A stretch of 64,000 nt of DNA. Origin: Rhodococcus yunnanensis NBRC 103083 (GTDB lineage Bacteria; Actinomycetota; Actinomycetes; Mycobacteriales; Mycobacteriaceae). The notes under the pieces are model-generated. The model was given only the letters and a program-made list of their open reading frames with translations. It made no database searches and was not told the DNA's origin. A program made the translations under genes and the position numbers. This document shows, one piece after another, positions 17,972 to 38,271 of the stretch (its first letter is position 1; each line of letters opens with the position of its first letter). The stretch is from the NCBI RefSeq assembly GCF_001895005.1, contig NZ_BCXH01000014.1, forward strand, positions 62,001-126,000, in the 5' to 3' direction.

Positions 17972-17979
17972 ACACAGCA

Positions 17980-19191: not shown

Positions 19192-19210
19192 TCAGGGAAA
19201 GGTTCGGAGA

Positions 19211-23485: not shown

Positions 23486-24628
23486 TCAGCGCCGCAACAC
23501 ACTGATCACGCAGGCATTTCCGTCCATACCGGCTGCGCCGCCGCCCATCGTCTCGACGACGCCTGTCTCGTGCTTGGCGACCTGCCTCGGTCCGGCGTCA
23601 CCGCGGAGCTGCCAGACGATCTCGGCCAGCTGCGCAGTACCGGTGGCGCCCAACGGATGTCCTCGCGACAGCAGACCGCCGCTGGGATTGACCGGTTGCG
23701 GTCCGGTGCGAGCGGTGTAACCGGAGGGCGCCATCTGCGCGCCCTCGCCCAGTTCGGCGACCCCGAGTGCTTCGAGTGTGGTGATCTCGCCGATCGTGAA
23801 GGCGTCGTGTACTTCCATGACGTCGATGTCCTTCGGCGAGATTCCTGCTGCGGTGAATGCTTTGTCGGCGGCCCGAGCAACACAATCGAATCCCCATACG
23901 TGCTTGGAACCATGGTCCCACAGGGCGCCGGAAACCATCGCCGAGGACAGAACTTTCACATCGCGGTGGCGCGCTCTGGGTCGTCCGATCACCGCAGCGC
24001 CTGCGCCGTCGGTCGTCGGGCAGCATTGCAGAAACGTCAGCGGCTCGGCGATCGCCCGAGAGCCGAGAACCTCCTCGATGGTCGGCGCACCCATTCTCAG
24101 ATGAGCCCGCGGATTGTCGAGGCCGTTGGTCTTGTTCTTGACGGCCACTGCGGCCAGCTGCTCCGGCGTCACCCCGTACTGGCCGATGTAGCGCTGTGCC
24201 TGCAACGCGTACAACCCGGGAAGCGGAAGCGACGCAGCACCTTCGGGGTCGGTGGCCTCGGGCACTATTGCACCGGTGAACAGTGTCGACATCTGGTCGA
24301 CGCCGAGTACGAGCACGCAGTCGAACCTGCCCACTCGCACTGCCTCCACCGCCTCGTGGTACGCCGCGGTGCCACTGGCACAGGCATTTTCGATGGTCCA
24401 CATCGGTATTCCCGGTAGTCCGAGTCCGCGTTGGATCCGAGTCGCGACGCCGGGGGGACCGAACACGGTTCCCACGATGATGGCATCGATGTCCAGTGGG
24501 TCGATCTCGGCGTCGCCGATCGCTTCGGTGACGGCTTCCCACGCGAGCGACTCGACGCGGCGGTGCTGGAACGCGCCGTAGTCCGACGTCCCGACGCCCA
24601 ACACCGCGACGTCGCGGTCGGCGCTCAC
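23486..24628 (-). CDS. Thiolase family protein (lipid-transfer/SCP-x-like), DUF35 partner
   Basis: 380 aa from GTG 24628, which overlaps the DUF35 stop (GTGA). Thiolase features: nucleophile Cys in ENACASGTAAYHEAV, His in SRGHPLGATGTAQ and the terminal GGGAAGMDGNACVISVL loop. The second catalytic Cys of degradative thiolases is not at its usual place (VVETMGGG), which is closer to SCP-x and aldolase-type members. Such proteins form complexes with DUF35 subunits and carry out C-C bond cleavage or formation on CoA thioesters. It is the last gene of the ten-gene operon and fits as the cleavage step after carboxylation and CoA activation. Confidence 0.88.
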   Translation of the reverse strand: MSADRDVAVLGVGTSDYGAFQHRRVESLAWEAVTEAIGDAEIDPLDIDAIIVGTVFGPPGVATRIQRGLGLPGIPMWTIENACASGTAAYHEAVEAVRVGRFDCVLVLGVDQMSTLFTGAIVPEATDPEGAASLPLPGLYALQAQRYIGQYGVTPEQLAAVAVKNKTNGLDNPRAHLRMGAPTIEEVLGSRAIAEPLTFLQCCPTTDGAGAAVIGRPRARHRDVKVLSSAMVSGALWDHGSKHVWGFDCVARAADKAFTAAGISPKDIDVMEVHDAFTIGEITTLEALGVAELGEGAQMAPSGYTARTGPQPVNPSGGLLSRGHPLGATGTAQLAEIVWQLRGDAGPRQVAKHETGVVETMGGGAAGMDGNACVISVLRR

Positions 24629-25032
24629 GAGTCGACCTCGGCGACGAGGTCGCCGTGTTCGAGACCGGTCACCGTGACGCGGGTGTCGATCGGCACCGAC
24701 TCGGGAACGAGGAGATGCGCCAGGACTCGGGGTCCGTCGTCGAGGTCGATGTAGCCGAGTGCGAACGGCGGCTTTCTGTTGCCTACAGGGATTGCCACGA
24801 CGGTGGAAGACCACATGCTGCCCGACGGCGAGAAGGTGTCTTCGACCAGCGGTCCTCTACAGACCGGGCACCACGGCAGATCCCGCTGCGCGGAGGGGTT
24901 TCGGCACGCCGTGCACCTCAGACCGTGTATCCGGTCGTGCGCGAATATCGGTCGACTGTCCGCAACCGCCAAACCTCCCTTGACCGCACCGGGGCGTCGT
25001 TTGGTGACGCGGCCCTCGGCCGGAATGGTCAT
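24625..25032 (-). CDS. DUF35 Zn-ribbon/OB-fold protein
   Basis: 135 aa. An N-terminal zinc ribbon (CTACRNPSAQRDLPWCPVCRG) is followed by an OB-fold (SSTVVAIPVGNRKPPFALGYIDLDDG). DUF35 proteins bind acyl-CoA and serve as obligate partners of thiolases or thiolase-like aldolases; the adjacent thiolase gene overlaps it by 4 bp. Its ATG overlaps the carboxyltransferase stop (TGATG), so all three are translationally coupled. Confidence 0.9.
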   Translation of the reverse strand: MTIPAEGRVTKRRPGAVKGGLAVADSRPIFAHDRIHGLRCTACRNPSAQRDLPWCPVCRGPLVEDTFSPSGSMWSSTVVAIPVGNRKPPFALGYIDLDDGPRVLAHLLVPESVPIDTRVTVTGLEHGDLVAEVDS

Positions 25033-26531
25033 CAGTGATCTCCCTGCAGGGTGAGGCTGAAGTCGGGGGAGCTGAGGTGGACGTAGGCACCCGTTGCGGC
25101 CGTGACGAGTTGGCGCACGTACCCCATCTCTCGACTGGACGCACCGAAGTCACGGTTGCGTTTCGGAGTGTCCCGCATGATGTCGATCTCGTTGCCGGGC
25201 ACCAGCAGGCGCAGGATGAGCTCGTCGTCGTCGACGTTGCCGAATCGCTGACGTAGATCGTCGAGCGACGGTTGCGCCGGAATCCAGTCGTGGTAACTCT
25301 TCGCTTTCGGTGAGGCCTGGATGACGTCGACGACGTTCTGATCCATCGGTGCGACGGCATCGCCGTAGTGGCCGTTGACGTACATCAGCACCTCGTCGGG
25401 GATGACGGAGTAACGCTTGCCGGTCACCACGTTCAGCACGGCCTGCGTGCCGACCAGCTGCGAGAACGGCGTCGCCATGACCGGATAGCCGAGTTCGGTG
25501 CGTACCGTGGACATCTCGTCGAGCACTTCCTCGAACCGATCGGCCATTCCGCGTTCGGCGAGCTGCGCCTTGAAGGTGCCGGTCATACCGCCGGGTAGTT
25601 GGTGGCGGTACAGGAACAGGTTGAACTCGGCAGGTGTGCCGACGGGTAGGCCCTCGTATTCGGCGACGCGTTGCAGGTGCTGCTCGACGGGGGAGAACTG
25701 GGAATCGTCGAGCTCGACGTCGAAGCCGGCGTACTTCAGATTCGAGTACGTCACCTCGGTCGACGGGAGCGAGACGCCCGCGGCCAATGTACGGCTTGCG
25801 GTATGGACCCGGTCGGCCCCGGCGAGGGCAGCTTCCAGGTAGTTCACCGGAGCCATCGCATTGTTGCTGTGGAAGTGAACCTCGACGGGCAGTTCACCCG
25901 CTGCGGTCTTGATCGCCTTGATCAGGCTGCGAGTGCGGTCGGGCGTGAGCAGGCCTGCCGCATCCTCCAGTTCGATTCCATCGGCGCCGAGGCCGACGAG
26001 TTCCCTTGTGCGAGCAACATAGTAGTCGTCGGTGTGGTAGGGACTGTCGGCATACAGGATGCACGGAATGGCCTGTGCACCTTCGGCCTGTACGGTCTTG
26101 ACGAGACGGCCGATCTTGTCGAGGTTGAACAGGCCGTCGTAGATCCAGAAGCTACCGATACCGTGCGCGACCAGACGCTGCACCCACAGGTCCATCACAC
26201 TGTCCGCGGTGAGACCGAACGTGACGATGCCGTTGCTGCGCGTGCCTGCACGGACCGTGGTGCGCGGCATGGCCTTGGACAATGAGATCAGCTGATCCCA
26301 CGGATCTTCCTTACAGTGCCGCACGAGCACCTCGAAGATCGAGCTTCCGACCAGATCGATCGTGTGGAAGCCCGTGCGGTCGAGGTGATCTGCGATGGGA
26401 ATACCCATGTCGCGGCGCATCCGCATACCCCACCAGCTCTGCGGGCCGTCGCGCAGCGTCTGGTCGATGATCTGAATCTTCCGGCGGGAACCGTCGGGAA
26501 GGGTCGGTGCGCAATCGATGAAGCTGGTCAT
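25032..26531 (-). CDS. Pyruvate-carboxylase/5S-type carboxyltransferase subunit (HMGL-like)
   Basis: 499 aa from ATG 26531 (4-bp overlap with the biotin carboxylase stop). A DRE-TIM barrel: QTLRDGPQSWWGMRMR (metal Asp28), EVHFHSNNA with the HxH metal pair at 219 and 221, then the carboxyltransferase helical part with HQLPGGMTGTFKAQL and ATPFSQLVGTQAVLNVV. This is the fold that transfers CO2 from biotin to pyruvate or another keto substrate, not the crotonase-fold AccD type. The Lys of the family's KDMAG motif, normally carbamylated and a metal ligand, is Glu here (ELEDAAGLL, Glu189), so metal site and substrate may differ. Partner biotin carboxylase and BCCP genes are directly upstream. Confidence 0.85.
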   Translation of the reverse strand: MTSFIDCAPTLPDGSRRKIQIIDQTLRDGPQSWWGMRMRRDMGIPIADHLDRTGFHTIDLVGSSIFEVLVRHCKEDPWDQLISLSKAMPRTTVRAGTRSNGIVTFGLTADSVMDLWVQRLVAHGIGSFWIYDGLFNLDKIGRLVKTVQAEGAQAIPCILYADSPYHTDDYYVARTRELVGLGADGIELEDAAGLLTPDRTRSLIKAIKTAAGELPVEVHFHSNNAMAPVNYLEAALAGADRVHTASRTLAAGVSLPSTEVTYSNLKYAGFDVELDDSQFSPVEQHLQRVAEYEGLPVGTPAEFNLFLYRHQLPGGMTGTFKAQLAERGMADRFEEVLDEMSTVRTELGYPVMATPFSQLVGTQAVLNVVTGKRYSVIPDEVLMYVNGHYGDAVAPMDQNVVDVIQASPKAKSYHDWIPAQPSLDDLRQRFGNVDDDELILRLLVPGNEIDIMRDTPKRNRDFGASSREMGYVRQLVTAATGAYVHLSSPDFSLTLQGDH

Positions 26532-27913
26532 GGTGTCTCCAGGAATTCGGGTAGTCCGGTTTCGGCGATCCAGTTGGTGCTGACGGTGGCCGACCGAAAG
26601 TCCTTGTGATCGAGCGCGAAATGCGCGAAGTCGGCGGTGGTCGGCACGCCGTCCACCTCGAGTGCCTTCAAGGCCGCGAGCATCTTCGCGATCGCGTCCT
26701 CGCGATCGGTGCCGTATGCCACGATCTTGGCCAGCAGCGAGTCGTAATAGGGTCCGACGACGTAGCCCTCCTCGGCGTGGGTGTCGACGCGGATGCCGTC
26801 CAGATCGGGTGATCGCCAGCGTGCCAGAGTGCCTGTGCGTGGGAGGAATCCGTCCCTCGGAGACTCGCTCGTGATGCGTACCTCGATGGCGTGCCCCGTA
26901 GTGGTGACGTCGTGTTGCCCGAACTCGAGCCGGTCGCCCTGCGCCGACCTCAGCTGTTGACGGACCAGGTCGATTCCCGTCACGCACTCGGTCACCGGAT
27001 GTTCGACCTGGATTCGGGCGTTGAACTCGAGGAATGCGAAGTCGCCGGTGTCAGCGTCGTAGATGAATTCGACGGTTCCTGCGCTGTCCAGACCGATGGC
27101 CTCGGCGAAGGCCAGTCCGGATGCCCTGATGCGCGCCCTCGTCTTCTCGGAAAGCCCGGGTGCTGGACTCTCTTCGATCACCTTCTGATGGCGGCGTTGG
27201 AGCGTGCAGTCGCGCTCGCCCAGTTGTACGACGCTGCCGTGGCGATCGCCCAGGACCTGAACCTCGATGTGACGCGCTGTCCGAATGTACTTCTCGACGA
27301 ACAGTGATCCGTCTCCGAACGCCGATTGTGCCTCGGAACCGGCGGCCGAGAATCTGGCGCGAAGTTCAGCGTCGCTCTCGACGACCGACATTCCGCGCCC
27401 GCCGCCGCCCGCCGAGGCCTTGATCAACACGGGGTAGCCGATGTCTGCCGCCGCGCGAGAAGCATCGTCGACGTCGGTGACGATCGGAGATCCCGTCAGT
27501 ACCGGAATGCCCGCGGCTCGGGCGATGTCGCGGGCACGCGCTTTGTCGCCTGCTTCGGTGACGACGTGGGGTGCCGGGCCTACGAACGTGAGCCCGTTGT
27601 CGACGCACATCTGTGCGAACTGCGGATTCTCGGACAGGAAGCCGTATCCGGGATGCAGTGCATCACAGCCACTTCCGAGTGCAGCGGAGATCACCGACGG
27701 CATGTTGAGGTAACTCGCAGTGGCGGCGGGTGGGCCGATGCAGACGGTGCGGTCGGCGAGCCGCGCGGGAACGGAGTCGCGGTCGATCGTCGAGACCGCG
27801 AGGACGGTCTCGATGCCGAGTTCTCGGCACGATCGAATGACACGGACCGCGATCTCACCCCGGTTCGCGACGAACACCTTCTTGATCGGGCGGTAGTCGA
27901 TGTCACTCATCAT
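26528..27913 (-). CDS. Biotin carboxylase subunit (AccC-like)
   Basis: 461 aa (ATG 27913 or 27910). The ATP-grasp biotin carboxylase is complete: [21 protein letters not shown] at the N-terminus, glycine-rich [29 protein letters not shown] and [16 protein letters not shown]. It carboxylates biotin on the BCCP encoded just upstream, using ATP and bicarbonate. It has no fused biotin domain, so the enzyme is a three-polypeptide carboxylase. Overlaps BCCP by 11 bp and the carboxyltransferase by 4 bp. Confidence 0.95.
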   Translation of the reverse strand: MMSDIDYRPIKKVFVANRGEIAVRVIRSCRELGIETVLAVSTIDRDSVPARLADRTVCIGPPAATASYLNMPSVISAALGSGCDALHPGYGFLSENPQFAQMCVDNGLTFVGPAPHVVTEAGDKARARDIARAAGIPVLTGSPIVTDVDDASRAAADIGYPVLIKASAGGGGRGMSVVESDAELRARFSAAGSEAQSAFGDGSLFVEKYIRTARHIEVQVLGDRHGSVVQLGERDCTLQRRHQKVIEESPAPGLSEKTRARIRASGLAFAEAIGLDSAGTVEFIYDADTGDFAFLEFNARIQVEHPVTECVTGIDLVRQQLRSAQGDRLEFGQHDVTTTGHAIEVRITSESPRDGFLPRTGTLARWRSPDLDGIRVDTHAEEGYVVGPYYDSLLAKIVAYGTDREDAIAKMLAALKALEVDGVPTTADFAHFALDHKDFRSATVSTNWIAETGLPEFLETP

Positions 27914-28430
27914 CAGGATCTATCAGGAAGAGAACCTGGTCGTACTCCACCATGTCCGCGTTCTGCGCTTCGATCGCGACGATCGTTCCTGTCACCGGAG
28001 CCGACACGTTGCTCATCAGCTTCATCACCTCGACGATGCCGAGTTGCTGGCCAGCATCGACGTGCTGGCCCACCGTCACGAACGGCGCCTCACCTGGACT
28101 CGGAGACACCCAGAAGGCCCCGACGACGGGGGACTTGACGGCGACTTCGTCCCCGGTGCTCACACGTGCGCCCACGGGTGCAGCCGGTGGGTCGACCCGA
28201 GCGGGCGGAGGGACCGGCGCCAGCGCATGTGCCGGTGGAGGCGGAGGTGAGGGCGTAGGAATCGGCGCTGCGGTGCCGTGAGTTGTCGCCGGCGCCCCGT
28301 CGCGGCCGAGGACCAGGTGCATTCCATGGATGTCGAGTTCCATGCTCGCCCAGCCCGACGCGGTGAATTCTTTCACCAGCGCGGTGAGCTCGCGCATCGT
28401 GACGTCGGTTGGAATTGTGTTGTCGGTCAT
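27903..28430 (-). CDS. Biotin carboxyl carrier protein (AccB-like)
   Basis: 175 aa. The first 45 residues form a helix-rich segment, residues 50-90 are a Pro/Ala linker, and the C-terminal biotinyl domain carries EVMKLMS with Lys137 as biotin acceptor. The thumb-like AFWVSPSPGEAPFV segment is of the E. coli AccB type. It shuttles carboxybiotin between the biotin carboxylase and the carboxyltransferase encoded downstream. A strong AGGAGGA lies seven bases upstream although the ATG overlaps the PPDK-like stop (ATGA). Confidence 0.94.
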   Translation of the reverse strand: MTDNTIPTDVTMRELTALVKEFTASGWASMELDIHGMHLVLGRDGAPATTHGTAAPIPTPSPPPPPAHALAPVPPPARVDPPAAPVGARVSTGDEVAVKSPVVGAFWVSPSPGEAPFVTVGQHVDAGQQLGIVEVMKLMSNVSAPVTGTIVAIEAQNADMVEYDQVLFLIDPDDE

Positions 28431-30208
28431 CGTCTTTCCTCCTGAAGGGCGATCGCAGCCAGCAACACCGGAAGTGCCCTGTCTGCGACGACTGTTCTCA
28501 CACCGGCGTCGAGAGCTGCGCGCAGCGCATCGCGGCGTCCGAACACCGCGCCGCGCACCGACACCGTCCCTGCTGGAATGTCGGGTACGGCATCGGGATC
28601 GACATCCGCCGGCGACTCGGCGTCGAAGACAGGTTCGGGAGCATCTCCGCGGATCACATCGACGGGCGAGTACTCGCGCGCCCAGCCGATGAGACGTTGC
28701 AGATCGGTGTCCTCACTCTCGTCGACGGAGACGGTCGGCAGTTCGCCGGAGTAGACCTTGCCCGTCACGGCGTCGACGGTCACGATCTTCCCGACGAGAT
28801 CGGCAACAGCCCCCGGATATCCGACGACGCAGGGTGTGTCGAGTGCTCGGCTCACCACGGCTGCATGCGACGTGGCGCCGCCGGTCTCGGTGACGACGCC
28901 TGCGGCGGCGATCATGCCGTGTACGTCCTCGGGGCTGGTGTTCTTACGGACGAGAATCGAGTTCGGAATCTGCTCGGCCTCTTCCGGTGTGGCGACTGCG
29001 AGTCCGCTCGCCACACCCGGGCATGCGGAGGTCCCGGCGCCGAGGAGCGTGGCAGCTGTGATCGACGCCGGATCCACGACGGGCCGCAGCAGGGTCGTCA
29101 CCTGCTCAGGCGTGACGCGCCGCAGCGCCTCGCGCGGGGTGATGACCTCCTCGTCGACGAGCTCGACGGCGATCCGGACGGCCGCGCGGGCCGTGCGCTT
29201 GGCCGGCCGGGACTGCAGCATGTACAGCGTTCCTTGCTGGACGGTGAACTCGATGTCCTGTGCGTCACGGCCGTGGGCGTCGAGCCGCTCGGCTGCTGCG
29301 AGCAGTTCGCGGTGGACGTCGGGAGCGCGGTCGGCGAGCCGCGCGAGCGGCTCGGGAGTGACCCGTCCGCTGACGACGTCCTCGCCCTGACCCCGTGGCA
29401 GGTATTCGCCGTATGCTTCGCGCTCACCCGAGAGCGGATTTCGGCTGAACAGCACTCCGGTGCCGGAATCGTCGTCGAGATTGCCGAAGACCATCGCCTG
29501 AATGGTGACGGCCGTGCCGAGGTCCTGAGGAATTCCGTGGTGTGTGCGGTAGGCGATCGCGCGCCGCGTGCGGCTGGATTCGAATACCGATGCCACCGCG
29601 GATTCGAGTTGCTGCCACGGATCCTGTGGCACATCCCGGCCGGTTTCGCCGACGATCGCTGCGCGCACCGCATCTGCGCAGTCGTGGGAGTCGAGATCGT
29701 CTGCGCATCCGAGGACGAGTTGGCCGTAGAAAGCATGGAATCGGCGATTGACCTCCGCTGCGAACTGCGCGCTCCCGGTCTCCTCGGCGAGTGCGCGCTC
29801 GACGTCGTCGGTGAACCCGAGATTGAGAATCGTGTCCATCATGCCCGGCATGCTGACCGCGGCACCCGAGCGAACCGACACCAACAGTGGCTGATGCGTC
29901 CCGCCGAACGTGCGGCCGAGAGTGGCTTCCAAGCCGGCGATGCCGACACGAAGTTCCTGGGCCATACCGTCGGGCAGCGTTTTTCCGCCGTCGAAGAAGG
30001 CCTTGCACGCATCGGTGGTGACGACGAAGGCGGGCGGAACCGTCAGCCCGAGCGAAGCCATGCGCCACAGGCTCCATGCCTTGCCGCCGACCAGGTCGCG
30101 GTCCGGCTCTGCGGTCTGCCCGCCCACGACCACAAGCCAACGGCTCTTCGGGTCGGCAGACGGCCCTGCTGCTGTCGTCTGCGCGGCTGTCGTCTCCGCG
30201 GTGCTCAT
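28427..30208 (-). CDS. Truncated PPDK-like phosphotransferase (ATP-binding plus phosphohistidine domain)
   Basis: 593 aa from ATG 30208. The N-terminal PPDK ATP-binding domain is well conserved: LVGGKAWSLWRM (39-50), SVRSGAAVSMPGMMDTILNL (111-130), IQAMVFGNLDDDSGTGVLFS (236-255) and DIEFTVQQGTLYMLQSRPAK (318-337). The swivelling domain has ETGGATSHAAVVSR with phospho-acceptor His448. The PEP/pyruvate TIM barrel of full-length PPDK (about 880 aa) is missing, so the phosphate acceptor must be bound elsewhere, perhaps by another subunit. M. tuberculosis PpdK (Rv1127c) is also short. It sits between a small unknown gene and BCCP with 4-bp overlaps on both sides, tying phosphotransfer to carboxylation. 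Confidence 0.88.
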   Translation of the reverse strand: MSTAETTAAQTTAAGPSADPKSRWLVVVGGQTAEPDRDLVGGKAWSLWRMASLGLTVPPAFVVTTDACKAFFDGGKTLPDGMAQELRVGIAGLEATLGRTFGGTHQPLLVSVRSGAAVSMPGMMDTILNLGFTDDVERALAEETGSAQFAAEVNRRFHAFYGQLVLGCADDLDSHDCADAVRAAIVGETGRDVPQDPWQQLESAVASVFESSRTRRAIAYRTHHGIPQDLGTAVTIQAMVFGNLDDDSGTGVLFSRNPLSGEREAYGEYLPRGQGEDVVSGRVTPEPLARLADRAPDVHRELLAAAERLDAHGRDAQDIEFTVQQGTLYMLQSRPAKRTARAAVRIAVELVDEEVITPREALRRVTPEQVTTLLRPVVDPASITAATLLGAGTSACPGVASGLAVATPEEAEQIPNSILVRKNTSPEDVHGMIAAAGVVTETGGATSHAAVVSRALDTPCVVGYPGAVADLVGKIVTVDAVTGKVYSGELPTVSVDESEDTDLQRLIGWAREYSPVDVIRGDAPEPVFDAESPADVDPDAVPDIPAGTVSVRGAVFGRRDALRAALDAGVRTVVADRALPVLLAAIALQEERR

Positions 30209-30813
30209 TCGTCGCGCTCGCGGCCGGTGATGCGCAGGATGTGCTCGTGCATCTGGAACCACACCGTGTGGAACGAGTCGATGCGTACGGAACTGACGTA
30301 GTCGAGTTCGCCGTCCTCGGCGCGAGTGAGTGCGTCGGCGATACGGCCGAGGAAGCGGTCGACGGACGGCTGGGCTGCGATCAACGGGGCCAGGATCGCC
30401 GCGGTCCTGTCCAGAACCGTGCCCAGTTTGTCGATGATCTTGTCGTCGTATGCGGTATCGCTGTGGTCGTTGGGTTGACGTTCGCCTGCCACCTCGGTGG
30501 TCTGCCACGCCGTCGTCAGCGAGAGCACCTGCTTGTTGACGCCGGACTCGAACGAGTCCATCGCAGAGGCGATCTCGGCATCGCTTCGTTCCTTGGCGAA
30601 CCACTGCGGGTACGCGTCGTCGAGGGCAGAGCGGCCGGCGGGAGAGATCATGTACTTGCCGCGAGCCGCCAGTGCGGTGCCGTCGGAGACTGCCCGTTCC
30701 AGTGCGGATTTCACGTCGTCGGGATCTAGATCCAGGATGGCGACCAGGCCTTCGACGTCGGCCAGTTGCTTCAACGTCAGGCAATGCAGGGTCGAGAGGT
30801 AGGGGTCAGGCAT
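30205..30813 (-). CDS. Unrecognised PPDK-associated protein with winged-helix-like N-terminus
   Basis: 202 aa. I do not recognise a named family. The first 75 residues (HCLTLKQLADVEGLVAILDL, then ALAARGKYMISPAGRSALDDAY) look like a winged helix. The remainder is helical with several conserved-looking aromatics (DSFHTVWFQMHEHILRITG). It overlaps the acyl-CoA synthetase stop by 8 bp and the PPDK-like start by 4 bp, so it is made in step with the phosphotransferase. By analogy with the third subunit of phenylphosphate synthase it could be a regulatory or stimulating subunit; that is inference from position only. Confidence 0.6.
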   Translation of the reverse strand: MPDPYLSTLHCLTLKQLADVEGLVAILDLDPDDVKSALERAVSDGTALAARGKYMISPAGRSALDDAYPQWFAKERSDAEIASAMDSFESGVNKQVLSLTTAWQTTEVAGERQPNDHSDTAYDDKIIDKLGTVLDRTAAILAPLIAAQPSVDRFLGRIADALTRAEDGELDYVSSVRIDSFHTVWFQMHEHILRITGRERDE

Positions 30814-32287
30814 TGGTTGCTTCCTTCTCGGTGCTCATGCGGTCGCGGACTTCGCGACGGAGGGATTTGCCGACCGGACTGGTGGGCAAGGAGTCCCAGA
30901 ATTCGATGTGCCTCGGACGTTTGAAGCCGGCGAGCCGCGACGTGCAGTGGTCGGCCAGTTCCTCGGCACTGACGCTGCTGCGTGCCACGACTGCGGCCGA
31001 GACTCGTTCGCCCCAGCGCTCATCGGCGATTCCGACGACCGCTGCCTCCAGCACCGCTGGATGGGCGAGCAGTACGTCCTCGACTTCGCGGGGGTACACG
31101 TTGAATCCGCCGCTGATGATGACGTCGTGCCGACGATCGAGAAGATAGAGATAACCGGAGTCGTCGATCTGGCCGAGATCGCCTGTGTGGAGCCATCCGT
31201 CGTCGTCGATCGTTTCAGCGGTTGCCTCGGGTCGGCGCCAGTATTCGCGCATCGTGTGCGGGCCACGGGTGACGACCTCGCCGACGCCGCCGGCCGGAAG
31301 CGAGTTGTTCTCGGTGTCGCGGACGTCGACTTCGACGAAGGTGTAGGGCTTTCCCGCGGACGCGAGCCGGTCCGGAGTGTGCTCCCACGGCTGCAGGCAT
31401 GTGATGGCGAGAGGCGCCTCGGCTTGTCCGTACAGCTGCGCGAAGACCGGACCGAGTATCTCGATCCCGCGGGCGAGGAGGGTTGTTGCCATCGGCGCAC
31501 CGCCCCAGCAGAGTCGTTCCAACGTCAGATCCGCGGTGGCAGTGCCTGGATGTTCGAGCAACATCGCGATCATCGTCGGAACCATGAAGGTGTTGGTGGC
31601 GCCGTATCTTCCGGCTGCGTCGAGAAAGCTCGTAGGACTGAACTTCTCCAATACGACGCTCGGCGCTCCCTTGACGAGGTGGGGCAGGAAGAACGCTCCG
31701 CTGCCGTGGGTGATCGGTGCCGCATGCAGCATCACCGACGTCGGGCCGATGTTCGGGACGAGGTCGACGAGGAAGTTCGCGACCTCGGCGAGTTCGGTCG
31801 CGGTCGTCAGTACAACGGCTTTGGGTTTTCCGGTGGTGCCTCCGGTGTAGGCGAGTCGGAGTGGATCGTTCGGTTCCCTGGGCACGTCGCACGGGCTATC
31901 GGAGGCTACTGCCATCACGCCGGCGAGATCCTCGGCGCGCACCATGACATCGACCTCGGCTGCGGGCTCGCCGGCGAACACGTATCCGCGAGACTGTGAG
32001 TCGTCGATCTTGTAGCTGTGTTCGGCAGCCGTCTCGCGGGTGTTCAGCGGGACGCGGACGAGGCCCGCTTTCGCCAGCGCGTAGTAGACGACCACACCGT
32101 CGATCCCGTTGGGCATCGCGACGGCGACGCGGTCACCGGGGACGAGACCGAGCGCGAGCAGTGCATGACCCAGACGATCTGTTGCACTGTCGAATTCGGC
32201 GAAGCTTACCGTCCGCGCTTCGGTGATGATCGCAGGCGCGTCGCCGAACTGGCGGCCGGCTCGGCGGATCAGGTCTCCGATCTGCAT
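30806..32287 (-). CDS. AMP-forming acyl-CoA synthetase / ligase
   Basis: 493 aa from ATG 32287, with GAGGAG five bases upstream. ANL-superfamily motifs in order: P-loop YTGGTTGKPKAVVL, the AMP site around YGQAEAPLAI (usually YGxTE), the hinge DRRHDVIISGGFNVYP and the C-terminal catalytic Lys in SPVGKSLRREV. It activates a carboxylic acid to its CoA thioester. In this operon the acid could be the product of the biotin-dependent carboxylase, later cleaved by the thiolase. The leader upstream carries three exact 21-bp repeats. The substrate is unknown. Confidence 0.93.
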   Translation of the reverse strand: MQIGDLIRRAGRQFGDAPAIITEARTVSFAEFDSATDRLGHALLALGLVPGDRVAVAMPNGIDGVVVYYALAKAGLVRVPLNTRETAAEHSYKIDDSQSRGYVFAGEPAAEVDVMVRAEDLAGVMAVASDSPCDVPREPNDPLRLAYTGGTTGKPKAVVLTTATELAEVANFLVDLVPNIGPTSVMLHAAPITHGSGAFFLPHLVKGAPSVVLEKFSPTSFLDAAGRYGATNTFMVPTMIAMLLEHPGTATADLTLERLCWGGAPMATTLLARGIEILGPVFAQLYGQAEAPLAITCLQPWEHTPDRLASAGKPYTFVEVDVRDTENNSLPAGGVGEVVTRGPHTMREYWRRPEATAETIDDDGWLHTGDLGQIDDSGYLYLLDRRHDVIISGGFNVYPREVEDVLLAHPAVLEAAVVGIADERWGERVSAAVVARSSVSAEELADHCTSRLAGFKRPRHIEFWDSLPTSPVGKSLRREVRDRMSTEKEATNA

Positions 32288-32298
32288 GTGTACTCCTC

Positions 32299-32361
32299 GT
32301 AGTTGTGGCGCTGCGCGGGGTAGTTGTGGCGCTGCGCGGGGTAGTTGTGGCGCTGCGCGGG
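32299..32361. repeat. 21-bp tandem repeat, three exact copies, in the leader of the acyl-CoA synthetase gene
   Basis: Three contiguous copies of a 21-bp unit starting GTAGTTGTGGCGCTGCGCGG (32299-32319, 32320-32340, 32341-32361), between the unknown 520-aa gene and the ribosome site of the synthetase. Confidence 0.9.
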
Positions 32362-32378
32362 TGTAGGTGCGGGGCACA

Positions 32379-33941
32379 TCAGGAAAGATCGGCCCGGCGG
32401 AGACCGGCGCCGCGGCCGGCGATGGTGCGCGAGTTCGTCTGTCCCAGTGCGTACAGCTCGTCTGCCTCTCTCGTGTGCCAGTTGCGCTTGACCCACTCCT
32501 CGTCGAGGTACCGATACGGGGCCTGCGCGACACCGGGTGTGAATGCCGAGGCGCGAGCGTTGTACTCGTCGATCTCGAGGCGGCCTGCGCTGGTCACCCA
32601 CAGCCCGGTCTTGGGCTCGATGGTCGAGGACCCCGAGAAGTTCGATCGATCGCCGACCGTCAGCGCGAAGCGGTCCGGCTCGCGGAGAGCGTCGTACGGG
32701 ATTCCGGTCATCATGTGTTGGTTCAGCCCCGAATACCGCGCCATCTGATATTCGTTCGCCTTCTGATGCGGGAGGGAGAGCAAACCGACCATTTCGCCGA
32801 GGGCGTCGCGTGCGTACTCGTCGTTCATCAACGGCTTGAAACGTTGGGCACGGTCGTCGAGTTCGAACCAGTCGTCCTGCCGATACGTACCGGCCAGGTG
32901 TGCGAAATCCTTCCCGACCGACGAATAGACCAGCGCGCCGCCGTCGATCATCTGCTCGCGTGACCAGGTCGCTATCCGCTTCCACAGATCTGCCGTCGCC
33001 TCGTTGAGGATGGCGCGGTAGTTCTCCATCGTCTCGGCGAGAGTGTCCGCGTTCTCCATGCCGACGGGCTGGTAACCGTCGGTCAATGCGTCCGCGGTGT
33101 ACAAACCGACCGCGACGATGTTCGACGCCGCATACGTCGGTTCGGCCTCGAACGACGCCCAATCGTCCATCAGATTGAAATTCGTGTCCTTGAACACCAG
33201 TGAGATGCTGAGGTTGTTCAGCGGAAGGGCCGTCGCGATGCCGTCGAGCCAGGGGTAGTCGCCCTCGGTGAGATCGAAGAAGTCGCGCATGACCATCTGG
33301 CGGCCGTCGCCGAAGTTGTACGGCCCGCTGTTATGGATACCGATGCGACATTCGCAGTGCGCGAGGAATGCGTACTGCGAGAGCTGCGCCAGCAGCTTGA
33401 TGGTGGCGTCGTGCAGACGATCACCGGCGTTGACACCATGCAGGTCGGCCTCGATGACCTGGAGTGTCCGTTCGGGTAGGAACTGGCTGCGATCGCCGAA
33501 TTCCTTGTTGTTGATGTGTCCGTCGTTGCGGTGATAAGCCAGCGCGAAGCGCCTCGAGAAATCGACGACGTCGACGACGTCGACGACGTCCTCGGCCGCA
33601 TCCTCGGGGCGAAGAAGTCCCCAGTTCATCAGCATCTCGCGGCCGAGCAGGTAGAACGCGGGCATTCCCCACGCTGCGTTGACGGTGTCGACCTTGAGGC
33701 TCACCTCCCGGGCGCGATCACCGAGCTCCTCGGCGGGCGTCGCGGCATCGATTTCGCGCAGCAGCGTCGGTAAACGGTAGAAACTGTTCAGGTAGGACAG
33801 CAGCATGTACGGGTTCATCGGGAAGAGCTTCGATTCCTGAACGGTGCGGGTGATGCACAACCAGTACGTCGTGTCGCTCAGATTCCTTATGTAACTGTTG
33901 GTTTCGAGCAGTCCGCGGTAGTCGTATCGAGGTGTTCCCAT
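32379..33941 (-). CDS. Unrecognised protein of a PEP-utiliser-associated family (paralogue 1)
   Basis: 520 aa, soluble, no known family recognised. Visible landmarks are TRTVQESKLFPMN (31-43), WGMPAFYLLGREM (91-103), GPYNFGDG (206-213) and GDYPWLDGI (227-235). The same four blocks occur in the protein at 36943-38271, so the two are paralogues. Each is encoded directly downstream of a stand-alone phosphohistidine domain gene, which suggests that the pair works together, for example with this protein binding the phosphate acceptor. A DVVDVVDVVD run at 119-128 comes from a 9-bp microsatellite. Only 2 bp separate its ATG from the mobile-domain stop. Confidence 0.8.
   Translation of the reverse strand: MGTPRYDYRGLLETNSYIRNLSDTTYWLCITRTVQESKLFPMNPYMLLSYLNSFYRLPTLLREIDAATPAEELGDRAREVSLKVDTVNAAWGMPAFYLLGREMLMNWGLLRPEDAAEDVVDVVDVVDFSRRFALAYHRNDGHINNKEFGDRSQFLPERTLQVIEADLHGVNAGDRLHDATIKLLAQLSQYAFLAHCECRIGIHNSGPYNFGDGRQMVMRDFFDLTEGDYPWLDGIATALPLNNLSISLVFKDTNFNLMDDWASFEAEPTYAASNIVAVGLYTADALTDGYQPVGMENADTLAETMENYRAILNEATADLWKRIATWSREQMIDGGALVYSSVGKDFAHLAGTYRQDDWFELDDRAQRFKPLMNDEYARDALGEMVGLLSLPHQKANEYQMARYSGLNQHMMTGIPYDALREPDRFALTVGDRSNFSGSSTIEPKTGLWVTSAGRLEIDEYNARASAFTPGVAQAPYRYLDEEWVKRNWHTREADELYALGQTNSRTIAGRGAGLRRADLS
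33562..33591. repeat. 9-bp microsatellite within the 520-aa protein gene
   Basis: At least three copies of TCGACGACG, encoding the DVV repeats near residue 120. Confidence 0.75.
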
Positions 33942-33943
33942 GA

Positions 33944-34657
33944 TCAGTGATCTCCTTCGAGCTTCCAGATGCGTGCATGGCCGGTGTCGCCTGTTTCGTA
34001 GGCATCGGGACCGGGAGGCGCTGCGGTGATCTCGATTTCGACGATGTCGCCGTCGACGAGAGTGCCGATGGTCGCGTTCATCAAGGTGGGGACGTCGTAT
34101 TCGCGTGCAAGGATGCCGAGGTGGGAGCGAACCGTCCCGCCGAGGCAGATGATGCCGGCGAAGCCTTCGAGGATCGGTGCCGTCAGCGTGCCGCCGGAGT
34201 CGTCGATCACGGCGATGGTTCCCTTCGGCACTCCGTCGATCAAGAAGTTCATGACCTGTTCGACGTCGGAGACCAGCGCAACAGGTCCGCTGATGGGGGC
34301 AGCCTTGCGAATGACGTTGTCCCCTGAACCGACGAGGCGACGGCCGTCGACCAGCTCTCCTTCCGGCTGATCCCCCAGCTCGGCCTTGGTGGCCGCCTTG
34401 TACTTCTCCGGCTCGGACGCAAGGGACGCGGTGGCCGAGTATTCGAAGCGGTAGCCGGAATCGAGGGCATCCTTCTCCACCGCGATGGCGTCGGCGATCG
34501 AGAACAGGCTGCCGCCCAGGACGAGCTCGGGCCACGGCGCGTCGGACGCCGCGATACGTGATGCGACAAGTTCGCGGATAGCCGAGTTGTAGCGGAGGGG
34601 CAGCGGAGTGAGCTCCGCCGCACCCCATTTGGGAGCTGTGACTGCCGGGTCTGTCAT
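33944..34657 (-). CDS. Stand-alone PEP-utilising-enzyme mobile (phosphohistidine) domain protein 1
   Basis: 237 aa from ATG 34657. The C-terminal half (about 115-212) is the swivelling phosphohistidine domain of PEP synthase/PPDK: GTIAVIDDSGG, then GGTVRSHLGILARE with candidate acceptor His179 and DVPTLMNATIGTLVDGDIVE. The first 110 residues are not recognised. No ATP-binding domain is present, so phosphate must come from another protein; the PPDK-like enzyme five genes downstream is the obvious donor. It is the first gene of the ten-gene operon that ends with the thiolase. Confidence 0.87.
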   Translation of the reverse strand: MTDPAVTAPKWGAAELTPLPLRYNSAIRELVASRIAASDAPWPELVLGGSLFSIADAIAVEKDALDSGYRFEYSATASLASEPEKYKAATKAELGDQPEGELVDGRRLVGSGDNVIRKAAPISGPVALVSDVEQVMNFLIDGVPKGTIAVIDDSGGTLTAPILEGFAGIICLGGTVRSHLGILAREYDVPTLMNATIGTLVDGDIVEIEITAAPPGPDAYETGDTGHARIWKLEGDH

Positions 34658-34766: not shown

Positions 34767-35564
34767 ATGGTGGACAGTCCTGATCCGATTCGACGGCCTG
34801 CCGCCTCGTCCGATCACCGCGCTGTCCTGAAGAACGCCGACTACCGCCGTGCCTTCGCCGTGCTCGAACGCTGCGACTCGGCCAATTGCCTGTCCGACTT
34901 CAAGGAACAGGTGGTCGAAGGGCTGTCGAGTGTCTTCGGGTTTCGGGACGTGTCGTTCTTCGCCGGTCCGACATTTCAGACGACGTTCGTCGATCGATCG
35001 CCTGTGGTGACAGGACGCACCGAATCGATGCTGACCGAATATCACGACCGATGGGCGCACCACGACGTATTCGGAACTCCGACGGCACTCCGCATGCTCC
35101 AGTCGGGTGGAGTGGCCTCGTTGGCCGAGGTCAACGCACTGGGTGCGATGCCGTCGACGGCGTCGGCGTACGTGCACCACTTCCTCACCGGAACGTGGTC
35201 CGTCGACGCCGCAGCCGCGATGCGCGTCGATCTGTACGGGATGCACACCGGTCTGATCGGAATCTTCACCGGTGACGCGAAACAATTGGGGCCGACCGAA
35301 CTGGCGACGCTGCGATTGTTGGCGCGTCAGTTGTCGGCAGTAGCGCGCAACATCCCCTTCGTATCGTGTCGAGGGGACTTCCAGGATCTCACGGCCAGGC
35401 AGCGCGACGTCGTCAAGCTCATCGCCGAAGGATTCAGCAACGCGCAGATAGCGGCGACCCTGTCCCTCGCCGAGGACAGCGTCAAGAAGTACGTCAGCAG
35501 AATCCTGGCGACCACGGGATGCCATACGCGAATGGAACTCGCACTCCTCGCCCGGTCGGGATAG
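34767..35564 (+). CDS. LuxR family regulator with GAF-like/autoinducer-binding-like N-terminus
   Basis: 265 aa from ATG 34767 (an in-frame TTG at 34716 is an alternative). The C-terminal helix-turn-helix is standard: LTARQRDVVKLIAEGFSNAQIAATLSLAEDSVKKYVSRIL. The N-terminal 190 residues (FGFRDVSFFAGPTFQTTFVD, MLTEYHDRWAHHDVFGT) look like the sensory domain seen in LuxR proteins of catabolic clusters. It is divergent from the carboxylase operon and next to the second mobile-domain operon, so it likely activates one or both. Its stop codon abuts a 33-bp repeat array. Confidence 0.87.
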   Translation: MVDSPDPIRRPAASSDHRAVLKNADYRRAFAVLERCDSANCLSDFKEQVVEGLSSVFGFRDVSFFAGPTFQTTFVDRSPVVTGRTESMLTEYHDRWAHHDVFGTPTALRMLQSGGVASLAEVNALGAMPSTASAYVHHFLTGTWSVDAAAAMRVDLYGMHTGLIGIFTGDAKQLGPTELATLRLLARQLSAVARNIPFVSCRGDFQDLTARQRDVVKLIAEGFSNAQIAATLSLAEDSVKKYVSRILATTGCHTRMELALLARSG

Positions 35565-35725
35565 CTCCGCAGGCTCCGCTCCTGCTCAGCCCGGTCGCTC
35601 CGCAGGCTCCGCTCCTGCTCAGTCTGGTCGCTCCGCAGGCTCCGCTCCTGCTTGCTTTGGTCGCTCCGCAGGCTCCGCTCCTGCTTGCTTTGGTCGCTCC
35701 GCAGGCTCCGCTCCTGCCCAGTCCG
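35564..35725. repeat. 33-bp tandem repeat, five copies, beginning at the LuxR stop codon
   Basis: Five units of 33 bp, each beginning GCTCCGCAGGCTCCGCTCCT (35564, 35597, 35630, 35663, 35696), the last incomplete. The minus-strand core AGGAGCGGAGCCTGCGGA is almost the same as the core of the array at 38121-38252. Confidence 0.92.
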
Positions 35726-35769: not shown

Positions 35770-36915
35770 CTAGAGAAATGAATCCTCGCGGGTGAGGCCG
35801 TATTTCGGGTGCTCACCGATCACCATGGATTCGAAGATGCCGTATCCCTCGGCGTCGCCTTCGCGGGTGCGGATCGGTAGATCGCGGAGCTGGTGAACCT
35901 CGCGTACACCGTCGGGCGTCGACACGTCGGCGATTCGTTCGCCGTCGAGATGGTCGGGGCCCGCGTAGATTCCGTGTCGCTGGTTCCTGAACCCGAAATA
36001 CAGTCCAGTACCCAGATGGAAACCGGTATCGCTGATCGGCTCGATCTCGACGCGGCGGGTCTCGCCCCAGCCCGCGTCGAATTCGATTGTGCCACCAAGG
36101 AGCCTGCGATTCTTCGGGTCGAATTTCAGATCGTCCCTCACGCCGACCAGCGGGTGCTGCGAACCGTCGGATTCGTTGACGAAACCCGAGAAGTACGTGA
36201 CGGTGTCGCCTTCCTTCTGAAGGTAGAAGTGAATCTCGTACTTGCTGCCGTCCGGTCGCTTGAAGTACATGGGCGTCCAGAAGAGGGTGAAGTCGCGATC
36301 CAAGCGCTGCAACCGGTGTACGTCGGATGGGGGTTCGCCGACGTCCATGCGTACACCCCACGAATGATCGCGATAGGCGAGCCACTTGTCGGGAGTGATG
36401 TCGACGGTGCTGCCGTCGATCTTCAACGTTCCTTCTGCAGTGCACGCTTGGTGATATCGCAATACCTCGGAACACATCCGAAGCCCCAGAGTGTCTCGCT
36501 GTGCGTCCTTGGCCTCGAGGAACGGCGGAAGGATCGCTGTGATGGTGACGTCGAACTCGATGGGCTGAATGTCGTTCTTACGGAGTACGAGTCGGAGCTT
36601 CTTCATCGGTTCGATCACTTCGTAGTCGAACGGTCCGGCACCGATTCGTTCGAGGTCGTCGTCCAGAGTGCGGCTTGCACGGACGGTGATCTGCTCGGTG
36701 CCACGCGAGACGCCCGCGAACATGTCCATCACGTTCCGGTTGTGGTATTTCCCGAGTCCACAGTCGATTTGGAGCGATCCGTCGAGGGCGAAGATCGGCG
36801 ACCACACCTTCTCGGTCCACGAGATGTCCGACTCGGATACGGTGGCGAACGTCTGCACGGTCTGGTGGTGCAGCAATTCGTCGGCGGGAAGAAGCTTCTG
36901 CATTGATTGACGCAT
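35770..36915 (-). CDS. Lipocalin-like (CrtC/DUF7064-type) protein
   Basis: 381 aa, no signal peptide. The double beta-barrel character and the DHSWGVRMDVG motif (about residue 185) resemble the CrtC/AttH-like lipocalin proteins annotated as DUF7064/DUF7065; these include carotenoid hydratases and many orphan proteins in terpenoid and steroid clusters. Conserved aromatic and charged residues suggest binding of a hydrophobic substrate. It is the last gene of the second operon, 27 bp after the paralogue-2 gene, with AAAGAGA before its ATG. The exact activity is unknown; hydration or isomerisation of the pathway substrate is possible. Confidence 0.6.
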   Translation of the reverse strand: MRQSMQKLLPADELLHHQTVQTFATVSESDISWTEKVWSPIFALDGSLQIDCGLGKYHNRNVMDMFAGVSRGTEQITVRASRTLDDDLERIGAGPFDYEVIEPMKKLRLVLRKNDIQPIEFDVTITAILPPFLEAKDAQRDTLGLRMCSEVLRYHQACTAEGTLKIDGSTVDITPDKWLAYRDHSWGVRMDVGEPPSDVHRLQRLDRDFTLFWTPMYFKRPDGSKYEIHFYLQKEGDTVTYFSGFVNESDGSQHPLVGVRDDLKFDPKNRRLLGGTIEFDAGWGETRRVEIEPISDTGFHLGTGLYFGFRNQRHGIYAGPDHLDGERIADVSTPDGVREVHQLRDLPIRTREGDAEGYGIFESMVIGEHPKYGLTREDSFL

Positions 36916-36942
36916 GAGTCTCTTTCTGTGAATAGGTGTCGA

Positions 36943-38271
36943 TCAGCCGATCGGCCGGAAACAACTGCTCCGATCCGACGGAACGAAGATTCCGCCGATG
37001 AGGCCGAGCGCAACGGCTGGATCGCTGAACTTCGCGTAGCTGTCCACGATGCGCGGCGTGATGGCCCAGTCGATCTCGTCGTACACCCCGGCGACACGGG
37101 CCCAGCTCTTGAGCTTCCAGCTGTACATCTGCGTCGCGTACAGGTTGCGCTGCTCCGGATCGGTGTCCGCGAAACGTGAGTAGAGTGCGCGGTGCGCTGC
37201 CCGCACGGACTTCTCGACGGAGTCGACCTCGTCGCCGTGCAGCGGCCGCAGGCCTGTTCCGTCGTTGACGAACACGCGTGCGTCGATGACCTCGTCGAGG
37301 TAGTTGCTCGGATCGAACCAGGCTGTGCCCCAGACGTTGTTGTCCATCTTCACCGAGTCCGGCAGTCGGTAGGCGAGCACGAACTGGTGGTGTGCGAGAC
37401 CTTCGCGGATACCGTCCAGCCAGGGGAACTCGCCGTACTTGTCGGCGCACAGCTCACGCAGGAACAGGAACGTTCCGTCGCCGAGGTGGTACGGGCCGGT
37501 GTCGCAGACTGCGGTGCGTGCATCGCAGTTCTCGAGGAACATGTAGCCGGTCAACCGCGCGCCGAGCTTGCGCAGCTTGAGCCGCATCGCGTCGTCGACG
37601 GGGTTGAGCTCGCCCAGGATCCGATCCACCGTGGAGCCGTTCACCACACGGGAGCTGTCGGCGGGTTCGGCGTCCATGTTGAACAGGACGCCGTCCTCGC
37701 GCATCGCGATGGTTGCCTCGCGCCAGAACCTCAGTACGGTGAGCTGATCGTCGAGTCCCTGCTCGAGCGAGTTCTCGCCGAGGTCGACGAAGATTTCGCG
37801 GCCGGTCATGTAGTGGAGCGGCATCGCGGCGAGGTTGATGAAGTTCTTCTTGGTGCCGACCGACAGTTCCTTCGCGACAAGCTCGGTCGCGGTGTGCTTT
37901 GCGGTGATCGTGCGGATGCGTTCGGGAACGCGGAGGTAGTCCTCCATCATCGACATCAGGATGTAGGTGTTCATGCCGAACAGTTCCGACTCGAAGACCG
38001 TTCGCGCGGACAGTTCGCTCTTGTAGGCCGCTCCGCCCTTGTGGATCAGCCAGTTCCACTCGTCGAGGGTCGGTTCGTAGCTCGGGTCGGTGTACAGCCG
38101 AACGAGGTCGGTCGGTGTAAATGTTGCAGGAGTGGAGCCTGCGGAATGACCCGATGTTGCAGGAGTGGAGCCTGCGGAATGACCCGATGTTGCAGGAGTG
38201 GAGCCTGCGGAATGACCCGATGTTGCAGGAGTGGAGCCTGCGGAATGACCCGAAAATGCAGATGCGGTCAT
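36943..38271 (-). CDS. Unrecognised protein of a PEP-utiliser-associated family (paralogue 2) with repeated N-terminus
   Basis: 442 aa from ATG 38271 (ATGA overlap with the mobile-domain gene). It shares four blocks with the protein at 32379-33941: ARTVFESELFGMN (89-101), AMPLHYMTGREI (149-160), GPYHLGDG (259-266) and GEFPWLDGI (280-288). Residues 7-50 are four copies of SGHSAGSTPAT, encoded by a 33-bp DNA repeat, giving a flexible tail absent from the paralogue. Like paralogue 1 it follows a stand-alone phosphohistidine protein. Function unknown; probably the catalytic or substrate-binding partner of that domain. Confidence 0.8.
   Translation of the reverse strand: MTASAFSGHSAGSTPATSGHSAGSTPATSGHSAGSTPATSGHSAGSTPATFTPTDLVRLYTDPSYEPTLDEWNWLIHKGGAAYKSELSARTVFESELFGMNTYILMSMMEDYLRVPERIRTITAKHTATELVAKELSVGTKKNFINLAAMPLHYMTGREIFVDLGENSLEQGLDDQLTVLRFWREATIAMREDGVLFNMDAEPADSSRVVNGSTVDRILGELNPVDDAMRLKLRKLGARLTGYMFLENCDARTAVCDTGPYHLGDGTFLFLRELCADKYGEFPWLDGIREGLAHHQFVLAYRLPDSVKMDNNVWGTAWFDPSNYLDEVIDARVFVNDGTGLRPLHGDEVDSVEKSVRAAHRALYSRFADTDPEQRNLYATQMYSWKLKSWARVAGVYDEIDWAITPRIVDSYAKFSDPAVALGLIGGIFVPSDRSSCFRPIG
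38121..38252. repeat. 33-bp tandem repeat, four perfect copies, in coding sequence
   Basis: Units 38121-38153, 38154-38186, 38187-38219 and 38220-38252, each beginning ATGTTGCAGGAGTGGAGCCT. They encode SGHSAGSTPAT four times at the N-terminus of the 442-aa protein. The core AGGAGTGGAGCCTGCGGA matches the array at 35564-35725 at 17 of 18 bases. Confidence 0.95.

What the first reader, a model, noticed from the sequence alone, without database searches (positions are those of the whole stretch)
23486..34657. Ten-gene operon joins PPDK-type phosphotransfer, a biotin-dependent keto carboxylase, acyl-CoA ligase and thiolase
Seen: nearly every junction is an overlap of 1-11 bp or a 2-bp gap, from a stand-alone phosphohistidine domain through an unknown 520-aa protein, AMP ligase, small unknown protein, truncated PPDK, BCCP, biotin carboxylase, pyruvate-carboxylase-type carboxyltransferase, DUF35 and thiolase; the exception is the 91-bp leader with repeats before the ligase. 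Known: acetophenone degradation runs ketone phosphorylation/carboxylation, CoA ligation and thiolysis; phenylphosphate synthase is a split PEP-synthase relative. Inference: the operon may encode a new route in which an enolisable ketone is phosphorylated or otherwise activated by the PPDK-like system, carboxylated from biotin, made into a beta-ketoacyl-CoA and cleaved. I know of no described pathway with this set.
Basis: partly seen in the sequence, partly recalled or inferred. Interest (0 to 1): 0.92.

Follow-up and report, generated by a model that had tools for sequence, protein, structure and literature searches.

The report
Kinase-primed ketone carboxylation operon, new variant
A soil bacterium carries a conserved ten-gene set that probably tags a ketone with phosphate, adds carbon dioxide to it and cuts it in two for food, using a phosphate-handling machine that seems to be assembled from separate proteins.

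Summary
The ten-gene operon is real, at the stated coordinates. It is no chance neighbourhood: of 41 related loci with both flanks near 10 kb, all 41 hold the stand-alone phosphohistidine (swivel) protein, the 202-aa protein, the short PPDK and the three carboxylase parts beside the 520-aa protein, in actinobacteria, proteobacteria and one Bacillus. This operon is most likely that logic on other parts: a PPDK-type ATP donor with a small partner (the VadK/Rv1126c kind), a separate swivel protein, a probable acceptor protein with no fold match found, a carboxyltransferase with a changed metal site, and a thiolase/DUF35 pair. Phosphatases of two unrelated families lie in 29 of 41 loci, so the phosphate is probably a removable tag rather than an enol phosphate; none is in the window's own cluster. 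The substrate is unknown and no activity was tested. I rate it a new variant of a known kind, with a testable side-claim about the VadK family.

The parts
33944..34657 (-). HIS: stand-alone phosphohistidine (swivel) protein, 237 aa, catalytic His179
   Evidence: Pfam PEP-utilizers 28.6 bits; His in 76 of 76 aligned, window plus 75 from the 80 loci
32379..33941 (-). U520: probable acceptor (substrate-binding) subunit of the dikinase, 520 aa
   Evidence: no Pfam/NCBIfam family; related proteins are fused to a swivel domain (L033:15472-17100); AlphaFold pLDDT 86.9, no PDB match at E <= 0.001
32299..32366 (.). 21-bp tandem repeat x 3.2 in the U520-ligase gap
30806..32287 (-). LIG: AMP-forming acyl-CoA ligase, 493 aa
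   Evidence: Pfam AMP-binding 233.8 bits
30205..30813 (-). SML: 202-aa partner of the short PPDK; predicted winged-helix domain (residues 1-73) plus helical part
28427..30208 (-). PPDK-short: ATP-grasp + swivel His448, no PEP/pyruvate-binding domain; VadK-type phosphoryl donor, 593 aa
   Evidence: NF004531 703.7 bits, cut-off 456; matches PPDK residues 15-549 of 874; His in 60 of 61 and Arg113 in 61 of 61 aligned
27903..28430 (-). BCCP, 175 aa
   Evidence: Pfam Biotin_lipoyl 60.3 bits
26528..27913 (-). biotin carboxylase, 461 aa
   Evidence: Pfam Biotin_carb_N/C and CPSase_L_D2
25032..26531 (-). CT: pyruvate-carboxylase-type carboxyltransferase, 499 aa, Glu189 where pyruvate carboxylases have the carbamylated Lys (role recalled)
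24625..25032 (-). DUF35/OB-fold thiolase partner, 135 aa
   Evidence: Pfam OB_ChsH2_C 37.2 bits
23486..24628 (-). thiolase, 380 aa
   Evidence: Pfam Thiolase_C_1 130.5 bits
34716..35564 (+). divergent LuxR-type regulator conserved beside the operon
   Evidence: 51-53% homologues in the same place in L033, L034, L067, L071
38268..38642 (-). HISb: second swivel protein, 124 aa
   Evidence: 49% to the swivel part of the fused protein of L033; His aligned
36943..38271 (-). U520b: second acceptor-type protein (28% to U520)
   Evidence: no Pfam family
35770..36903 (-). DUF7065-like protein linked to the second module
   Evidence: weak Pfam DUF7065, 16.7 bits, below its cut-off of 27; homologues of 62% or more beside the second module in 9 other genomes or plasmids

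Best explanation
The operon encodes a catabolic route for a hydroxylated ketone that works like the Hpe pathway but with a different, multi-part dikinase. Steps, all inferred from anatomy and homology: (1) PPDK-short, with SML, takes a phosphate of ATP onto a swivel histidine (ATP to AMP + Pi, as in PpsAB and RPH); (2) the phosphate reaches the separate swivel protein HIS, either directly from the ATP site or from His448 (not known which); (3) HIS hands it to a hydroxyl of the substrate held by U520; (4) BCCP, biotin carboxylase and CT carboxylate the carbon next to the ketone; (5) a phosphatase (PTP-like or SurE in relatives, none in the window's cluster) removes the tag; (6) the ligase makes the beta-ketoacyl-CoA; (7) thiolase/DUF35 cleaves it to acetyl-CoA and a shortened acyl-CoA. 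Shown: gene content, order, conservation, intact catalytic histidines, absent PEP-binding domain, altered CT metal site. Inferred: every reaction, their order, and that U520 is the acceptor.
For: Conserved set in 41 of 41 fully flanked loci. Fused swivel + U520-like proteins and PPDK-SML fusions (5 loci) show which parts go together. Swivel His 76/76, PPDK His 60/61. The same chemistry is shown for HpeHI, HpeCBA and HpeD. A truncated PPDK of the same build in mycobacteria autophosphorylates in vitro, and co-expression of its partner Rv1126c improved its solubility (PMC13400623). Phosphatases of two unrelated families in 29 of 41 loci. U520-linked CTs form one set with 100/99 support, apart from Hpe-like and PycB-like CTs.
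Against: No activity, substrate or expression data. U520 shows no profile match to HpeH-like proteins and no fold match, so 'acceptor' rests on fusion and co-occurrence. SML carries a MarR-like winged-helix domain, which fits a regulator as well as a kinase partner. The window and its two congeners lack the phosphatase; in the window's genome the nearest PTP-like homologue is 32% identical and elsewhere, and a SurE query found nothing (no positive control in that search). A carboxylase of the same CT clade, also with Glu, occurs in this genome with no dikinase beside it (L078), so the carboxylase does not always need the kinase.
Confidence: 0.58

Rival explanations
1. Enol-phosphate route: the dikinase phosphorylates the enol of the ketone itself and carboxylation expels the phosphate.
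For: PPDK makes an enol phosphate of pyruvate; the donor is PPDK-like.
Against: The PEP/pyruvate-binding domain is missing; a carboxylation that expels phosphate needs no phosphatase, yet one of two unrelated kinds is present in 29 of 41 loci.
Confidence: 0.12
2. The PPDK-short/SML/HIS/U520 group is a regulatory phosphorylation relay (as proposed for VadK) that controls the carboxylase or its genes, and the ketone is never phosphorylated.
For: VadK is published as a regulatory histidine kinase that interacts with methylcitrate-cycle enzymes (PMC13400623). SML has a MarR-like winged-helix domain; this raised the odds given here from 0.15 to 0.18.
Against: Swivel proteins of U520-linked or HpeH-like kind occur beside SML/PPDK-short in several different catabolic settings (these loci were partly hand-picked); HpeHI, RPH and PpsAB, built on the same ATP-grasp and swivel domains, phosphorylate small molecules.
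Confidence: 0.18
3. An anaplerotic or acyl-CoA carboxylase plus an unrelated PPDK, brought together by operon shuffling.
For: The CT is 31-36% identical to plasmid proteins annotated OadA and matches PycB, OadA and 5S chains.
Against: Same set in three phyla, in several orders; Lys replaced by Glu or Tyr in 63 of 64 distinct U520-linked CTs.
Confidence: 0.05

Closest known systems
Hpe pathway (HpeHI, HpeCBA, HpeD, HpeE, HpeF), Rhodococcus rhodochrous GD02; Acv of Sphingobium lignivorans SYK-6 (PMC9618137, PMC12167813; PMC13101465 passages only)
   Same: dikinase (ATP-grasp + swivel His), three-part biotin carboxylase, CoA ligase, cleavage to acetyl-CoA; a phosphatase in many relatives
   Different: donor is PPDK-type with its own swivel and a 202-aa partner; swivel and acceptor are separate proteins; no detectable relation of U520 to HpeH-like proteins; thiolase + DUF35 instead of a hydrolase; phosphatase, where present, PTP-like or SurE; CT outside the Hpe-like clade
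VadK (Rv1127c) with Rv1126c, Mycobacterium tuberculosis (PMC13400623: abstract, sections 17 and 18, passages)
   Same: truncated PPDK with ATP-grasp and His and a ~200-aa operon partner
   Different: in the five g29 loci with only the pair (L226-L229, L244) no U520 or HpeH-like gene lies in the 17 kb fetched; described as a regulatory kinase of the methylcitrate cycle
Phenylphosphate synthase PpsAB and CreHI (as described in PMC12167813)
   Same: split dikinases that phosphorylate a phenolic compound
   Different: two components with an HpeH-type acceptor; no following biotin carboxylase (recalled)
XccBCA of Aromatoleum aromaticum EbN1 (from the text of PMC9618137)
   Same: biotin carboxylase of a ketone pathway, clustered with hpeHI homologues
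   Different: sequence not compared here; kinase type differs
BbsAB benzoylsuccinyl-CoA thiolase (NCBIfam models)
   Same: thiolase + OB-fold partner (hits at 210 and 22.5 bits)
   Different: far below the curated cut-offs (750 and 250)

Membership tests
Hpe/Acv pathway | ATP-grasp donor + swivel His + biotin carboxylase (BCCP, BC, CT) + CoA ligase in one cluster | tested here: met
Hpe/Acv pathway | HpeH-type acceptor fused to a C-terminal swivel | tested here: not met
   acceptor and swivel are separate genes; fused paralogues have the swivel N-terminal; no profile match to HpeH-like proteins
Hpe/Acv pathway | carboxyltransferase of the HpeB clade | tested here: inconclusive
   falls outside the clade of L081/L245/L246, but these are Hpe-like proxies judged by gene content; HpeB itself was not at hand
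Hpe/Acv pathway | HAD-type (NagD-like) phosphatase HpeD in the operon | tested here: not met
   none among the ten genes; relatives have PF13350-type or SurE phosphatases
Hpe/Acv pathway | beta-keto hydrolase HpeF | tested here: not met
   thiolase + DUF35 in its stead
Hpe/Acv pathway | phosphorylates and carboxylates a hydroxyphenyl ketone | not testable with these tools
   no assay
VadK / NF004531 short PPDK | ATP-binding and His domains present, PEP/pyruvate domain absent | tested here: met
VadK / NF004531 short PPDK | partner of the Rv1126c family | tested here: inconclusive
   the SML profile finds the partner beside a short PPDK in a locus with PE_PGRS, DUF222 and ScfRs genes (L227); that this is the Rv1126c-Rv1129c region is recalled gene order, and the Rv1126c sequence was not compared
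canonical PPDK | C-terminal PEP/pyruvate-binding barrel | tested here: not met
   match ends at residue 549 of 874
pyruvate carboxylase CT | carbamylated lysine at the metal site | tested here: not met
   Glu in the window; among 64 distinct U520-linked CTs 35 Tyr, 28 Glu, 1 Gly; the role of that Lys is recalled
rifampin phosphotransferase acceptor domain | rifampin-binding-domain fold in U520 | tested here: inconclusive
MarR-like winged helix | winged-helix fold in SML residues 1-73 | tested here: met

The most novel reading that the evidence does not exclude
The short PPDK plus its 202-aa partner is a general phosphoryl-donor unit, comparable to Enzyme I of the sugar phosphotransferase system, that feeds several separate swivel/acceptor pairs (two in this window, three in its two congeners), so that one donor serves different small molecules. 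U520 would be a new acceptor class. By extension the mycobacterial VadK/Rv1126c pair would be the donor half of a small-molecule dikinase rather than, or besides, a regulatory kinase.
Probability: 0.38. Interest if true: 0.85.

Novelty: new variant of a known kind. Interest (0 to 1): 0.72.

Why it matters
It would add a second and apparently more regularly clustered machine for kinase-primed ketone carboxylation: a paper notes, citing Hall 2025, that the Hpe-type kinase and carboxylase share a cluster in only 52 of 836 cases (PMC13101465, passage), while here 41 of 41 fully flanked loci have both (a set chosen by the 520-aa protein, so not the same kind of survey). It gives the VadK/Rv1126c family a concrete biochemical hypothesis, adds a carboxyltransferase subfamily with a changed metal site, and names a protein family (U520) without a fold match. 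Most of it can be tested in E. coli and non-pathogenic Rhodococcus.

Tried and rejected
Acetone carboxylase of Rhodococcus (recalled lead): the paper search listed 2 unrelated papers. Oxybenzone link through the plasmid of R. oxybenzonivorans: listings only, no paper on its genes seen. Isoprenoid ketones as substrate: nothing relevant listed. A ketone from the left-hand cluster (amidohydrolase, DUF59, Zn-ADH, flavin monooxygenase, SDR, 14709-20047): the last two recur in some relatives, the first three were not found in them as close homologues, so I draw no substrate from it. U520 as a rifampin-binding-type domain: no support by sequence, profile or fold (RPH entries do not appear in the 50 of 70 Foldseek rows shown). 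SML against PDB sequences gave chance-level matches only (best E 0.083). Print: (six terms for this gene set, at least four) listed 1 unrelated paper; (HpeHI, CreHI, VadK, Rv1126c, phenylphosphate synthase) listed 40 of 295, none of which by its title describes a VadK-type donor with a carboxylase. The library holds open-licence papers only, so absence from print is not shown; the MarK paper with the 836-cluster survey is not held.

Limits of counts: the 80 loci are the best of 124, chosen by U520 identity; the other 44 were not seen. 41 of the 80 have both flanks near 10 kb. Phosphatase counts are lower bounds: the PTP-like gene lies up to 10.5 kb from the U520 start, at the edge of the flank; SurE was counted by sequence cluster, with one member checked in Pfam. 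The CT residue count (76 sequences) held 7 loci twice; one search gives 69 distinct ones, 64 of them U520-linked. The 20 SML loci and the 5 were picked by me, the former partly because one search placed a swivel protein nearby, the latter for long open frames, so '8 of 20 with an HpeH-like protein' and '5 of 5 fused' are not frequencies; 18 of those 20 have a short PPDK in the stretch. HpeH-like scores there come mostly from the swivel domain. The one PPDK without the His (L094) is a frame that ends in a different, Enzyme-I-like sequence on a contig without the carboxylase genes; not followed up.

Full report
Observation. Family searches confirm each name; U520 and SML have no Pfam or NCBIfam match. 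The short PPDK matches NF004531 at 703.7 bits (cut-off 456) and matches solved PPDKs only up to residue 549 of 874, so the PEP/pyruvate-binding part is missing. It is the only gene over that family's cut-off in this genome.

Distribution. In 201 genomes (own plus 200 relatives) 14 have a U520 match and 10 have a full-length one of 49-100% identity. The same 10 have a CT of 46-100% (in G181 in two pieces on two contigs); the other 8 genomes with a CT match at E <= 1e-40 reach 30-37%. A scan of named genomes found 124 loci encoding U520 relatives and kept 80: Rhodococcus, Pseudonocardia, Amycolatopsis, Gordonia, Nocardia, Skermania, Hoyosella, Acidithrix, many alpha-, beta- and gammaproteobacteria and one Bacillus. 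Among the 41 loci with both flanks near 10 kb, HIS, SML, PPDK-short, BCCP, BC and CT are present in 41 of 41; a ligase of this type in 33, a thiolase of this type in 31, DUF35 in 17. One order (with small swaps allowed) holds in 30 of 41; in the other 11, seven of them sphingomonads by title, the same parts are rearranged. Content kept through rearrangement in three phyla is strong evidence of one function.

Link to VadK. The Mycobacterium tuberculosis protein Rv1127c is a truncated PPDK that autophosphorylates in vitro and whose loss stops growth on propionate or cholesterol; co-expression of its operon partner Rv1126c improved its solubility; the authors call it a regulatory kinase, VadK, and state that the genome has no gene for the missing domain (PMC13400623; abstract, sections 17 and 18 and passages). 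The SML profile finds a partner beside a short PPDK in a locus (L227) with PE_PGRS, DUF222 and ScfRs genes, which fits the mycobacterial gene order as I recall it. So what looks like the same donor pair sits elsewhere in catabolic operons with swivel and acceptor proteins. This does not disprove the regulatory role; it offers another.

The carboxylase. CT aligns with pyruvate carboxylase, oxaloacetate decarboxylase and transcarboxylase 5S subunits, but where those have the lysine that is carbamylated (role recalled) it has Glu189. Of 64 distinct U520-linked CTs, 35 have Tyr, 28 Glu and 1 Gly there; all 35 with Tyr have Asn in place of the second His of the HxH metal motif, and the other 29 keep it. 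The Hpe-like CT of L081 and the PycB-like CT of L082 keep Lys. In a maximum-likelihood tree of 37 CT rows the 23 U520-linked rows and L078 form one set of 24 (100/99), apart from the Hpe-like rows L081/L051, L245 and L246 (99/96). L078 is in the window's own genome, has Glu and no dikinase beside it, so the altered site is not tied to the kinase alone.

Phosphatases. A PTP-like (PF13350) or a SurE protein lies in 29 of the 41 loci: 16 each, 3 with both. Two unrelated phosphatases in the same place argue for a phosphate that stays on through carboxylation and is then hydrolysed, as HpeD does; an enol phosphate would be lost on carboxylation. Against this, 12 loci show none within the flank, and the window and its two congeners have none in the cluster; the genome-wide searches gave a 32% PTP-like homologue elsewhere and no SurE.

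Comparison with the known. The Hpe pathway phosphorylates 4-hydroxyacetophenone and acetovanillone (HpeHI), carboxylates only the phosphorylated forms (HpeCBA) and dephosphorylates them (HpeD), as shown with purified enzymes; ligase and hydrolase steps are proposed from homology. The present operon works like it in outline but fails membership on acceptor type, phosphatase and last step, and may differ in CT clade. Hence: a new variant of a known kind, with an unusual donor.

Verdict. Existence and conservation: firm. That the four proteins form one dikinase: likely, about 0.7. That the operon runs an Hpe-like route on a hydroxy-ketone: about 0.58. Substrate: open; methyl ketones carrying a hydroxyl, aromatic, terpenoid or steroid, are compatible.

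Noticed in passing
G000 contig C1, L078:14087-17501: A second BCCP-BC-CT set in the same genome, CT 42% identical and with Glu at the same site, beside genes that look like CoA-transferase, hydratase, thiolase and a flavin monooxygenase, with no dikinase.
   Followed up: partly
window 36903-36943: The fused swivel-acceptor gene present here in the two congeners is absent in the window.
   Followed up: no
window 38121-38253, 35564-35721, 41711-41763: Further tandem repeats (33 bp x 4.0 exact, 33 bp x 4.8, 18 bp x 2.9) at or near gene starts and junctions of this locus.
   Followed up: no
L061:16255-16350 and L086:11540-11640: In two congeners the U520-ligase gap holds a palindrome (by eye) where the window has 21-bp repeats.
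   Followed up: no
window 38781-43442: Acyl-CoA dehydrogenase-like gene, APH-type kinase and acyl-CoA ligase side by side, reminiscent (recalled) of the ACAD10/11 kinase-dehydrogenase pair for hydroxyacyl-CoA (APH and ligase by Pfam; dehydrogenase by homology).
   Followed up: no
L251, L252, L253, L254, L255: PPDK-SML fusion proteins with a TyrP-profile phosphatase and a ligase; 3-oxosteroid 1-dehydrogenase a few kb away in L251 and L253, the two tested.
   Followed up: partly
L233:5119-15431: HpeH-like protein, a SurE-looking gene (by eye), SML, ligase, a P450-looking gene (by eye) and short PPDK in one stretch without a carboxylase.
   Followed up: no
L094:13063-15348: A short-PPDK frame that ends in an Enzyme-I-like sequence, on a contig that then lacks the carboxylase genes; perhaps an assembly junction.
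   Followed up: no
L129, L130, L143, L154: MAG records titled Klebsiella pneumoniae or Bifidobacterium breve carry this environmental cluster; the titles are probably wrong.
   Followed up: no
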